Program-made: the position numbers and the translations under genes
Origin: Phycisphaerae bacterium
Lineage (GTDB): Bacteria; Planctomycetota; Phycisphaerae; SM23-33
DNA length: 36,163 bases
Assembly (NCBI GenBank): GCA_016931655.1
Contig: JAFGEJ010000121.1
Coordinates: 1-36,163, forward strand
Direction: 5' to 3'
The notes under the pieces: model-generated
What the model was told of the DNA's origin: nothing
Databases searched by the model: none
The model's input: the letters and a program-made list of their open reading frames with translations, nothing else
Shown here: piece by piece, positions 4,727 to 36,163 of the stretch
Layout of the letters: every line of letters starts with the position of its first letter
Numbering within the stretch: position 1 is the first letter of the stretch

Positions 4727-4760
4727 TATAACCGATTTGTTGATTGGTTCATTGAGGCCG

Positions 4761-5051
4761 TCCGGAAATTACTATGTCATTTTTTCTTTTCTTCGACCCG
4801 AAGGGTCGAGGAGCGTCTGGCCGGGGGTGAGCGAAGCGAACCCCCGGAAACGAGTTCTTTTTTAAAAAGAATTTGAGTCCCAACGGGACGACAGCGAGTT
4901 TGATGAGAAGGAACCGTTGCTGTCGCCCCGTTGGGGCTATAAGAAAATTAGCCGCCTTCCGGGGGGTCACTTCGTTCACCCCCGGCCAAACGCTTTTGGT
5001 CCCTTCGGGACCAGGAAACCGGTCTATTTGAAAAATGAAGTACTTCCCGAC
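4761..5051. repeat. MITE-like composite element with terminal inverted repeats GTCCGGAAATTACT..TCATTTTTTC / GAAAAATGAAGTACTTCCCGAC and nested hairpins
   Basis: Inner arms CTGGCCGGGGGTGAGCGAAGCGAACCCCCGGAA / TTCCGGGGGGTCACTTCGTTCACCCCCGGCCA; second partial copy at window end (36088-36163). Confidence 0.8.
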
Positions 5052-27195: not shown

Positions 27196-27230
27196 CATTG
27201 AAATAGCGTTTTCTTGTCGGAAACCAAATC

Positions 27231-27326
27231 ATCCACGGATTACGCGGATTTAGAAAGGATTTCACGGAGAATTTTTTTAAGAAAAATCCGTGTAATCTTT
27301 TACCATCCGTGTAATCCGTGGAGGAT
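27231..27326. repeat. ATCCACGGATTACRCGGATT-type inverted-repeat element
   Basis: Left ATCCACGGATTACGCGGATTT, right ATCCGTGTAATCCGTGGAGGAT. Confidence 0.8.
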
Positions 27327-27352
27327 TTTACAGCCGGCCGAAATTTGCCAGG

Positions 27353-28075
27353 CTATTTCGCCCCCATCGCCGCCACGAACAGATCCCACCAGACGTGCGA
27401 GCAGACAGCCGTCGCGAAGCCGCGCCACACGAACAGCACGCCCCACCACACACCGGCGACCGAAAGGAAGACAAACCGCCCCCACGGCAGGGGCGCTTCG
27501 CCCTGCCATTGCCCCGGCGAAAAATGCAACGCCGCGAACGCCACACCCGCCAACACCACCGCCACCACGCCGAACGTTTCCTTCCGAAGACCCAGCAGAT
27601 CGACGAACACCATCATCAGCACGCTCAGCAGGACCAGGCGAAAGAGGAACTCCTCGTACACGCCCGCGCCGACGGCCTCCACGACGCCGCGAAGCAGGTC
27701 CTGCCGAATCGCCGCCGGCGTGAAGTCCCGCGTGATCCAGCTCAACCCCAGCAGCGGGACGGACCAGAGGGCCGACTCCACCACAATTCCCCCAGCCACC
27801 CAGCCGTTAACGCGCCACGGGTCGTTGCGCGTCAGATGCTGCCCCAGCAGCACCGCCACGACCAGCCCCGCGGAGAGAAACGGCCCCGTCACGCCCATCT
27901 GGAGAAACACGTACCGCAGGTAGTGCGGCACGAGCAGACTGCTGCCCCAGTGCATCGCGCCAAGCTGAAAGATCACCAGCAGCGGCGCGATCACGAGCAG
28001 TTGATTCAAAGGCCGATGCGTCTCCTTTCCATATCGCAGACGCTCCGGCGGCAGCCTGGACGACGCTTTTACCAT
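27353..28075 (-). CDS. CPBP-family intramembrane metalloprotease
   Basis: EEFLFRLVLLSVLMM motif and FAALHF motif in a hydrophobic protein; start at MVKASSRLPPERLRYG. Confidence 0.85.
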   Translation of the reverse strand: MVKASSRLPPERLRYGKETHRPLNQLLVIAPLLVIFQLGAMHWGSSLLVPHYLRYVFLQMGVTGPFLSAGLVVAVLLGQHLTRNDPWRVNGWVAGGIVVESALWSVPLLGLSWITRDFTPAAIRQDLLRGVVEAVGAGVYEEFLFRLVLLSVLMMVFVDLLGLRKETFGVVAVVLAGVAFAALHFSPGQWQGEAPLPWGRFVFLSVAGVWWGVLFVWRGFATAVCSHVWWDLFVAAMGAK

Positions 28076-28093
28076 GCGGGCATTGTAGCGATT
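28072..28093. repeat. 22-bp direct repeat, left copy: CCATGCGGGCATTGTAGCGATT (contains CPBP start codon and -10)
   Basis: Exact match to 30333-30354; brackets the restriction-modification genes. Confidence 0.9.
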
Positions 28094-28318
28094 CTGACGA
28101 CGGCGGGTAGTTGTTATTACGTCCGGGAAGGTGTAGTAACCGTTTTTTTTGCAAGGGACGGGATGAGGAAATGCGAATAGAGGCATAAGGAAGCGCAGAA
28201 AACGTTTCATGGATAAACGCAGCGCGTATGACGATACTAAAACGGGCTATTGATTTATAAACCTTTGGGGGGTATCTTATCTTGCTCGCAAGGAACTTTT
28301 TCAAGCCATGTGCGGGAA

Positions 28319-29203
28319 ATGATCGCAAACAAAGAGACATTATTGTCATTGCCTTGGCCGTCTCTTAAGGACGTGGTCAACGTTGCTTCCGTGCCGCAAC
28401 GAAGTCCATTTCGCTATCCGGGAGGTAAAACATGGCTGGTTCCACAGGTTCGTCGGTGGTTGCTTTTGATGAATCGTCGCCCGCTCCTGTTTGTCGAGCC
28501 GTTTGCCGGAGGGGGAATCGCGGGATTAACCGTGGCGTTTGAGAATTTGGCGAAACAGGTTCTTATGGTCGAACTTGATCCCGAAGTGGCTTCCGTTTGG
28601 CGCACCATATTGAACGGTGGAAATCGTAAACTTGCGGATCGGATTCGCAATTTTGATTTAACCCTTGAAAACGTACAACAAGTATTGACGGCGAAACACC
28701 GAACTGTTTCAGGCCTCGCGTTTGCCACGATTCTTCGTAATCGGGTTCAGCACGGGGGGATTTTGGCGCCGGGCGCCGCTTTCATGCGCAAGGGGGAAAA
28801 CGGGAAAGGTATTCAATCCCGCTGGTATCCTGAAACCCTGGCGAAACGAATTCGCAATATCCATGCGATTCGTGATCGAATTGTATTCAGGCAAGGCGAT
28901 GCGTTTGACGTTATCGAGACATATCAGAATGAAAAAAATATCGTTTTCTTTGTCGATCCTCCGTACACCGTTGCGGGAAAAAGGCTTTATCGATACTCCG
29001 AGATCGATCATGAAAAACTGTTTGACAGGATGTCATCCGTGGCGGGTGACGTCTTGTTGACGTATGACGATACTCCGGAAATTCGTCGTTTGTCTTCGCG
29101 TTTCGAGTATCAAGTTGAAACGATCATGATGAAAAATCGGCAGAATAGCCGAAAATCGGAGCTTTTAATCGGACGCGACCTTTCATGGCTGCGAGGCGAA
29201 TAA
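28319..29203 (+). CDS. D12-class (Dam-like) adenine-specific DNA methyltransferase
   Basis: SPFRYPGGKTWLVPQVRRWL, FVEPFAGGGIAGLTVAFE, ILRNRVQHGGILAPGAAFM, FFVDPPYTVAGKRLY (DPPY), DVLLTYDDTPEI. Confidence 0.92.
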   Translation: MIANKETLLSLPWPSLKDVVNVASVPQRSPFRYPGGKTWLVPQVRRWLLLMNRRPLLFVEPFAGGGIAGLTVAFENLAKQVLMVELDPEVASVWRTILNGGNRKLADRIRNFDLTLENVQQVLTAKHRTVSGLAFATILRNRVQHGGILAPGAAFMRKGENGKGIQSRWYPETLAKRIRNIHAIRDRIVFRQGDAFDVIETYQNEKNIVFFVDPPYTVAGKRLYRYSEIDHEKLFDRMSSVAGDVLLTYDDTPEIRRLSSRFEYQVETIMMKNRQNSRKSELLIGRDLSWLRGE

Positions 29204-29215
29204 TTGTATTCCCGC

Positions 29216-30181
29216 TTATTTCCCTTTATTCAGCTTTTCTCTGATTTTGGACTCGAAATCTTCCAGGGTCACGGGAAGTCCGCCCGTTAAACCTTCGACG
29301 GCTCGTTCCAGTGTTTGTTTCTCCGGCTCTCCAAGCGTCAATACGGCAGTTTCACCGGATTCATCATATCGGGCGATAAACCACGCGATATCGCAGTTGG
29401 ATATTTCATCGACGGTATTCATTTGTCCAAGGTTCCGATAAAATCCCGCGTCCACAACAACAGCCATTTTCTTGCCCCATCGCCGAAGAGTGGGAACTTT
29501 GATCTGCAGTTGAGGCATCAAACGCTTGGGGCCGCTGCTTCGATAGTCGGGGCGGCGTACCGCATCGGGAAACGGTATACCCTCACCTTTATAATCACGG
29601 ATACTCCGGAAAAGAGAAGACATTCCGGTCCCGGAAAAATATACCGCCTGGATTTCCAGAGCGCACCATCGCATGGGGGAAGCCGTCGGATGAACAAGTA
29701 CATTGTCGATATTCCCGACGTCTTCTTTGCCGGATATTTCCCTTTCCCCATGTTTTTCTGAGGCTTGTTTTACGGCGCCGTCATCCGCACGAAATCGCTG
29801 TAAAAATCGAATTTCACTGACAACCAATGGTTCTGGCACTCCGAGAAGATGCTGCCCTATAGTTCGGTAAATGATGTTATTCTGCCTGAACCGATGCGGA
29901 CAGACGGCTCGCAAATCCCCTTCAACACCCTTTGCCGGAATTGCGGTTCCATGACCCGCGGACTCATACAGCCGTAACGAACAAACGCCACCCTTCTTGG
30001 TGCATTTTTCCGAACCATCAGGCGACTTGAACGGGCAAGGCATCTCCGTTTGCCGATTGTGTCGCAGCGCTGTTTTTGCCAATTCCTGTTGTTTCCGCTT
30101 CGGCATGGATTGGAATGAATACCCATACCACTCCCCGATTCCAAATCTTGCCGCCGTGTTCCTTGTTGCTTTACGCGCCAT
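29216..30181 (-). CDS. Putative NotI-family type II restriction endonuclease
   Basis: Four cysteines CPFKSPDGSEKC-TKKGGVC-...-RAVCPHRF, CALEIQAVYFSG, RPDYRSSGPKRLMPQLQIKVPTLRRWGKKMAVVVDAGFY, CDIAWFIARYD; resembles R.NotI from memory; convergent to a methylase. Start MARKATRN (alternative 30196). Confidence 0.78.
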   Translation of the reverse strand: MARKATRNTAARFGIGEWYGYSFQSMPKRKQQELAKTALRHNRQTEMPCPFKSPDGSEKCTKKGGVCSLRLYESAGHGTAIPAKGVEGDLRAVCPHRFRQNNIIYRTIGQHLLGVPEPLVVSEIRFLQRFRADDGAVKQASEKHGEREISGKEDVGNIDNVLVHPTASPMRWCALEIQAVYFSGTGMSSLFRSIRDYKGEGIPFPDAVRRPDYRSSGPKRLMPQLQIKVPTLRRWGKKMAVVVDAGFYRNLGQMNTVDEISNCDIAWFIARYDESGETAVLTLGEPEKQTLERAVEGLTGGLPVTLEDFESKIREKLNKGK

Positions 30182-30332
30182 TATGGATATCCCCATTAAG
30201 GGGTATTACCGGTGTATTATGCCTCGTCCGCCTGATTTGTTATTCCATTGTATTCAGAGACACGGCAATGGCAAGGGGGAGAGTTCAGATGTCACAGTGA
30301 TGATTCCGGCGGCGGTTTGAATGCCTGCGTCG

Positions 30333-30354
30333 CCATGCGGGCATTGTAGCGATT
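30333..30354. repeat. 22-bp direct repeat, right copy: CCATGCGGGCATTGTAGCGATT
   Basis: Exact match to 28072-28093; adjacent sequence encodes a truncated start MATQAFKPPPESSL*. Confidence 0.9.
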
Positions 30355-30539
30355 TGTTCGGCGCGATGACGCGAAAAAAAACCACAGCCGCCCCTCATTT
30401 ATTCCGATACGCATAGTATCGGCGAATGGGTGTTGAAGCGCCGTCCCCGGAGGGCGAATTCGGCACGGAAATTGCTCTTATAAGCAAGAACGAAGCCGGG
30501 AAGCGGTATTTCCCCTCACAGAACAGGAAAGGAACAATC

Positions 30540-31467: not shown

Positions 31468-31583
31468 AGTAGCCGGTAGTCGGTAGCCAGTAGTCAGGAG
31501 TCGGTTGTCAACGCCACCGGCTACCCGGCTTCGCCAAGGATTCGCCGGGCAAGCCGGCTACTGACTACCGACTACTGGCTACC
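31468..31583. repeat. AGTAGCCGGTAGTCGG-type inverted-repeat element
   Basis: AGTAGCCGGTAGTCGGTAGCCAGTAGTCAG ... CTGACTACCGACTACTGGCTAC with CCGGC-rich centre. Confidence 0.8.
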
Positions 31584-31833
31584 CTAATAGCTGCTGAAGA
31601 ATCGGCCCCGCGAGGGCCAGGAGCTGATTGAACAGGTCCAGTTCATTTCGACTTTCGTGATATCCCGCGACGGCTTGTTTGTATTCGTCCGTCTCGCGCA
31701 GACGCTCGGCCGATCGCTCGAAAATCACGATCCGGTCGATGACGGCGGCGAGGTTCGGATGCTCGACGGCCCAGTCGGCGTACGCCTGCCGGACGGCCTG
31801 CTGCACCGCGCTTTGGACAATATCATTTTCCAT
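31579..31833 (-). CDS. Hypothetical protein (84 aa)
   Basis: MENDIVQSAVQQAVRQAYADWAVEHPNLAAVIDRIVIFERSAERLRETDEYKQAVAGYHESRNELDLFNQLLALAGPILQQLLG; overlaps upstream lipoprotein gene, same strand. Confidence 0.55.
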   Translation of the reverse strand: MENDIVQSAVQQAVRQAYADWAVEHPNLAAVIDRIVIFERSAERLRETDEYKQAVAGYHESRNELDLFNQLLALAGPILQQLLG

Positions 31834-36057: not shown

Positions 36058-36087
36058 CATCTATGGCCTTTTGAGATAATTGAGGCT

Positions 36088-36163
36088 GTCCAGAAATTAT
36101 CCTGTTGTTTTTTCTTCTCTTCGACCCGAAGGGTCGAGGAGCGTCTGGCCGGGGGTGAGCGAA
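36088..36163. repeat. Second copy (truncated by window end) of the 4761-5051 element
   Basis: CTTCGACCCGAAGGGTCGAGGAGCGTCTGGCCGGGGGTGAGCGAA is identical to the 4761 copy. Confidence 0.85.

What the first reader, a model, noticed from the sequence alone, without database searches (positions are those of the whole stretch)
28072..30354. Restriction-modification module bracketed by an exact 22-bp direct repeat that duplicates a neighbouring gene's promoter and start codon
CCATGCGGGCATTGTAGCGATT occurs at 28072-28093 and 30333-30354. The left copy is the start codon and -10 (TACAAT) of the CPBP protease gene. Next to the right copy, the minus strand reads MATQAFKPPPESSL*, which has PPE at the same codon positions (9-11) as the real start MVKASSRLPPE. 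The ~2.26 kb between them holds only the methylase and endonuclease genes. This fits insertion with a long target duplication, a mode proposed for type II RM systems, or an att-like site. The inserted stretch also looks AT-richer than its neighbours.
Basis: partly seen in the sequence, partly recalled or inferred. Interest (0 to 1): 0.78.

Follow-up and report, generated by a model that had tools for sequence, protein, structure and literature searches.

The report
Restriction-modification genes beside duplicated gene start
A foreign-looking pair of DNA-methylating and DNA-cutting genes in a Phycisphaerae bacterium sits between two copies of a neighbouring gene's promoter and start codon, most likely a footprint of its insertion, but no empty site is available to prove it and the module itself is of a known kind.

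Summary
The 22-bp direct repeat is real: exact at 28072-28093 and 30333-30354, and found nowhere else in the genome. It brackets a convergent type II restriction-modification pair: a D12-class adenine methylase (28319-29203, +) and a NotI-family endonuclease (29216-30196, -). The genes are compositionally foreign (GC3 0.50 against 0.66-0.85 in neighbours), the endonuclease is absent from the only congener held, and the pair occurs in other planctomycetes at unrelated loci without comparable repeats. Fifteen of the 22 bases (TACAATGCCCGCATG) match a start signal common across the family, probably leaderless, so the naive rarity is overstated. Against 2080 pairs of other such starts, the two copies still outscore every apparently unrelated pair, so shared ancestry is likely. 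Unlike real orthologues, the promoter is identical and the coding part diverged (16/28). That fits a roughly 22-bp target duplication, or a crossover within the start signal, better than an old 50-bp duplication. The empty-site test is inconclusive: the congener has one diverged copy (17/22) and no RM genes, but its other flank is not syntenic. No inverted ends or integrase were found. New member of a known kind; insertion mode unproven.

The parts
28072..28093 (-). left repeat copy: TACAAT box and start codon of the CPBP gene (probable leaderless start)
   Evidence: aligned with congener start at 17/22
30333..30354 (-). right repeat copy, upstream of the endonuclease gene; ATG at 30336 opens a 14-codon ORF
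28044..28071 (-). CPBP codons after the start (MVKASSRLPPE), 16/28 to the matching stretch beside the right copy
30292..30336 (-). 14-codon ORF MATQAFKPPPESSL*, probable remnant or look-alike of a CPBP gene start
28319..29203 (+). D12-class DNA N6-adenine methyltransferase, motifs EPFAGGG and DPPY intact; ATG at 28319
   Evidence: PF02086 5.5e-10; PADLOC MTase_II; alignment
29216..30196 (-). NotI-family type II restriction endonuclease; start at 30196 or 30181
   Evidence: PF12183 1.5e-66; invariant D164, E181, Q183 and C54, C65, C72, C99 across 7 homologues
30247..30274 (-). sigma-70-like promoter TTGCCA-16-TACAAT upstream of the endonuclease gene
   Evidence: consensus match only; number of matches in the region is close to chance
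27353..28075 (-). CPBP/Rce1-like membrane protease gene, native to the genus (80% DNA identity to congener)

Best explanation
A horizontally acquired type II restriction-modification unit (adenine methylase plus NotI-family endonuclease, tail to tail) inserted at the start of the CPBP protease gene. The insertion left two copies of that gene's start signal: the left copy still starts the CPBP gene, the right copy stays with the old upstream flank and now lies upstream of the endonuclease gene on the same strand. Shown: the repeat, the RM genes, their foreign composition, the absence of the endonuclease in the congener, and the relatedness of the two copies above the background of similar starts. 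Inferred: that the insertion event itself made the second copy, either as a ~22-bp target duplication or as a crossover within the start signal, and that the right copy may now transcribe the endonuclease gene.
For: Exact 22-bp repeat unique to this place in the genome. GC3 of the two RM genes is 0.50 against 0.66-0.85 in nine neighbouring genes. Congener G001 has the CPBP gene (79% aa) with one start copy and no endonuclease gene. Homologous convergent modules occur in G032, G012, G068 and G153, next to quite different genes, so the unit moves. The two copies score 26/38 at the variable positions; of 2080 pairs of other TANAATGNNNNCATG starts in the family only two score as high, and both encode near-identical N-termini (MSKRDYYEVLG/MAKRDYYEVLG; MTRRNRSEPMP/MPRRHRTEPMP), so they look like the same gene in two genomes.
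Against: No clean empty site: the congener's CPBP upstream neighbour is a different gene, and orthologues of the window's right-hand genes lie on other contigs there. Outside the 22 bp the copies match only 16/28, about as far apart as either is from the congener (16 and 17 of 28), which a simple recent 50-bp duplication would not give. No terminal inverted repeats. The AT-rich block runs about 0.5 kb beyond the right copy. No comparable repeat flanks the homologous modules elsewhere.
Confidence: 0.6

Rival explanations
1. The two copies are independent instances of a common leaderless start signal (TACAATGCCCGCATG); the right one is simply a promoter near the endonuclease gene and the extra matching bases are coincidence.
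For: TACAATGNNNNCATG occurs 29 times against 11 for the reversed control at up to 1 mismatch in this genome; all 9 other sites read out open long ORFs, by eye including DnaJ-, MnmA- and LexA-like starts; TANAATGNNNNCATG is about four times enriched over the reversed control across 35 family genomes, with TACAATGCCCGCATG itself exact in G008, G018 and G019.
Against: The 6 bases before the box also match (6/6, seen in 2 of 2080 pairs) and the total of 26/38 exceeds every pair that does not look like the same gene. The right copy does not open a gene: stop after 14 codons, whereas 63 of 65 other sites stay open for 16 codons.
Confidence: 0.2
2. The right copy is the start of a diverged CPBP orthologue rather than a duplicate made on the spot: foreign DNA (linear or a circle) carrying RM genes next to its own CPBP start recombined within the identical 22 bp, leaving one native and one foreign start.
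For: Sharp border between 22/22 and 16/28 (if 12 mismatches were spread at random over 50 positions, the first 22 would all match with probability 0.0002, though the border was chosen after the fact). The right copy shares codon 2 GCG and the PPE codons with the congener (17/28). Coding divergence equals species-level divergence while the RM genes are not ameliorated, which an old local duplication would not explain.
Against: Tiny sample (28 nt). Same-gene pairs in other genomes show the opposite polarity, coding 22-24/28 and upstream 2-3/6. No donor locus found.
Confidence: 0.15
3. Integrase-type att site: the 22 bp is the core of a site-specific element.
For: Exact direct repeat at a gene end with one copy keeping the gene intact.
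Against: Only two genes fit between the copies, neither a recombinase; module homologues lack the repeat; 22-mer absent from viral contigs.
Confidence: 0.04

Closest known systems
Insertion of type II RM systems with long target duplication (Nobusato et al. 2000; reviewed in PMC3874152, PMC3031569)
   Same: RM pair bracketed by a direct repeat of host sequence, no transposase or integrase
   Different: 22 bp exact (50 bp at 76%) against 'in the order of 100 bp'; no allele without the insertion available
NotI-family restriction endonucleases with adenine methylase on plasmids (pEST4011, Aeromonas pKAM497_4)
   Same: 45-46% identical endonuclease and 51-52% identical methylase side by side
   Different: plasmid genes run in tandem, endonuclease first; in planctomycetes they are convergent, here with 12 bp between stop codons
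NotI itself (GCGGCCGC)
   Same: Pfam NotI domain; D..ExQ and four cysteines conserved in the homologues
   Different: no solved chain was matched by sequence; the partner is an adenine methylase, so the site should contain an A, unlike GCGGCCGC (inference)

Membership tests
RM insertion with target duplication | direct repeat of target sequence at both borders | tested here: met
RM insertion with target duplication | allele without insertion carries one copy at the same place | tested here: inconclusive
   G001 has one 17/22 copy at the CPBP start and no endonuclease gene, but the other flank is not syntenic
RM insertion with target duplication | duplication of the order of 100 bp (long mode) | tested here: not met
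   22 bp exact, similarity ends at 50 bp; length from PMC3874152
RM insertion with target duplication | imperfect terminal inverted repeats (short-duplication mode) | tested here: not met
   no end-to-end inverted match above shuffles
NotI restriction endonuclease family (PF12183) | profile match over the catalytic region | tested here: met
   1.5e-66, residues 43-284 of 326
NotI restriction endonuclease family (PF12183) | PD-(D/E)XK-type D..ExQ and four-cysteine metal site | tested here: met
   D164, E181, Q183, C54, C65, C72, C99 invariant in 7 homologues; equating them with NotI's own sites is from general knowledge
NotI restriction endonuclease family (PF12183) | cleavage of a defined site, blocked by the partner methylase | not testable with these tools
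   needs purified proteins or methylome data
site-specific integrated element | integrase gene inside the element | tested here: not met
   only the two RM genes between the copies

The most novel reading that the evidence does not exclude
RM units can integrate without an integrase by recombining at leaderless start signals, which are short and nearly identical across genes and species, so that each insertion keeps the target gene's start intact and hands a spare copy of the promoter to the endonuclease gene.
Probability: 0.07. Interest if true: 0.7.

Novelty: new member of a known kind. Interest (0 to 1): 0.3.

Why it matters
RM mobility without transposases is an old puzzle known mostly from Helicobacter comparisons; this would extend it to planctomycetes and put the insertion exactly on a start signal. 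It also warns that in genomes with leaderless genes, long exact repeats can partly reflect a shared promoter-plus-ATG signal.

Tried and rejected
Empty site in other genomes: family (35 genomes), 60 relatives and one genome-contig scan gave only one congener, with a rearranged flank. The congener's upstream neighbour gene has no match in the own genome (no positive control). Borders of the mobile unit from non-coding homology with G032, G012, G024, G068, G153: nothing above shuffles. Flanking repeats in other modules: none convincing. A sister genus with the module (G068, G153) offered no RM-free member. Viral contigs and phages: no relatives of the endonuclease by close search, no 22-mer. Solved-structure search by sequence matched nothing. 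An assembly artefact at a 22-bp repeat was considered; it cannot be excluded without reads, but assemblers normally resolve repeats this short. A first reading of the methylase start (28320) was off by one base and was corrected to 28319.

Full report
Observation. The 22-mer is exact at 28072-28093 and 30333-30354 and has no third copy in the window within 3 mismatches. In the whole own genome (2.82 Mb, 289 contigs) an 18-base core with up to two mismatches finds these two and one weak site. The similarity continues for 28 nt into the CPBP coding side at 16/28, giving 38/50 overall.

What lies between. The plus-strand gene (ATG 28319, stop 29203) is a D12-class adenine methylase (PF02086; PADLOC type II methylase models). 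The minus-strand gene (30196 to 29216) is a NotI-family endonuclease (PF12183, 1.5e-66). The stop codons are 12 bp apart. The alignment of seven endonucleases keeps D164, E181, Q183 and four cysteines invariant, and the methylase keeps its EPFAGGG and DPPY motifs (EPFAGG-type in all), so both look intact. The same convergent pair occurs in G032 (65 and 60% identity), G012, G068 and G153, and in tandem on proteobacterial plasmids. Neighbours differ each time except in the congeneric G068/G153. GC3 of the pair is 0.50 against 0.66-0.85 for nine neighbours. The pair is therefore a mobile, probably recently acquired RM unit (inference from composition and distribution).

What the repeat is. Its core, TACAATGCCCGCATG on the minus strand, is a -10-like box six bases before a start codon. 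That signal is enriched in the own genome (29 against 11 for the reversed control at up to one mismatch), the nine other sites inspected open long reading frames, and across 35 family genomes TANAATGNNNNCATG is found 207 times against 47 for the reversed control (summed). PMC5397173 infers leaderless and/or S1-dependent starts in planctomycetes from nucleotide bias. So most of the 22 bp is a generic start signal, probably leaderless; the chance calculation must be made against other such starts.

Are the copies related? For 65 other starts of this type (2080 pairs), matches were counted at the six bases before the box, the four variable core bases and 28 bases after ATGG. The pair in question scores 6+4+16=26 of 38; background mean 10.9, s.d. 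3.0; two pairs score at least 26, and both are evidently the same gene in two genomes, judged by their N-termini. The caveat is that pairs are not independent and only a part of all sites was sampled. Relatedness is likely, not certain.

How the copies differ. Same-gene pairs from different genomes keep the coding part (22-24/28) and lose the bases before the box (2-3/6). Here it is the reverse. In the congener the CPBP start differs from the left copy at 5 of 22 and 12 of 28 positions. An old 50-bp duplication should have diverged inside the 22 bp as well unless selection held it. A ~22-bp duplication, with the further 16/28 a coincidence (12 of 2080 pairs reach 16, same-gene pairs included), or a crossover inside the start signal, fits better. 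These cannot be separated with 50 bases.

Empty site. The only congener (G001, Phycisphaerae MAG, JAFGJE01) has HAD hydrolase and CPBP genes in the same order, one CPBP start, and no endonuclease homologue. But the gene upstream of its CPBP is unrelated to the window, and the orthologues of the window's right-hand genes lie on other contigs. So it shows the gene without the RM unit, not the ancestral site.

Mechanism classes. Integrase: none between the copies. Transposon-like RM with terminal inverted repeats: none found. Long target duplication: the length does not fit the published order of 100 bp (PMC3874152), although those lengths are described as variable. Composition places the left border at about 28065, but the AT-rich block runs to about 30890, so the right border is not marked by composition.

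Possible consequence. The right copy points towards the endonuclease gene, 140 bp upstream of its start, with a 14-codon ORF behind it; a second promoter-like site lies nearer (30274-30247). Whether the spare start transcribes the endonuclease gene is untested.

Verdict. A real, probably meaningful repeat around an acquired RM pair of a known type; insertion at the start of the CPBP gene is the best reading at about 0.6, with the mode of duplication unresolved.

Noticed in passing
window 27226-27328: Palindromic dispersed repeat (ATCCGTGTAATCCGTGG type) with over 20 matches in the congener genome.
   Followed up: no
window 31470-31590: Dispersed GTAGTCGGTAGCCAGTAGTC-type repeat arms; a related copy lies in L034:142-212.
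   Followed up: no
window 28319-30196: NotI-family endonuclease paired with an adenine methylase, so its site should contain A, unlike NotI's GCGGCCGC; on plasmid pBN5 the relative is paired with a cytosine methylase instead.
   Followed up: partly
own genome and 34 family genomes: TANAATGNNNNCATG is about four times more frequent than its reversed control, a family-wide probable leaderless start signal.
   Followed up: partly
window 4751-4835 and 36079-36163: 85-nt repeat at 91% identity whose second copy ends exactly at the contig end.
   Followed up: no
window 30406-30424: Inverted repeat CCGATACgcataGTATCGG about 50 bp outside the right repeat copy.
   Followed up: no
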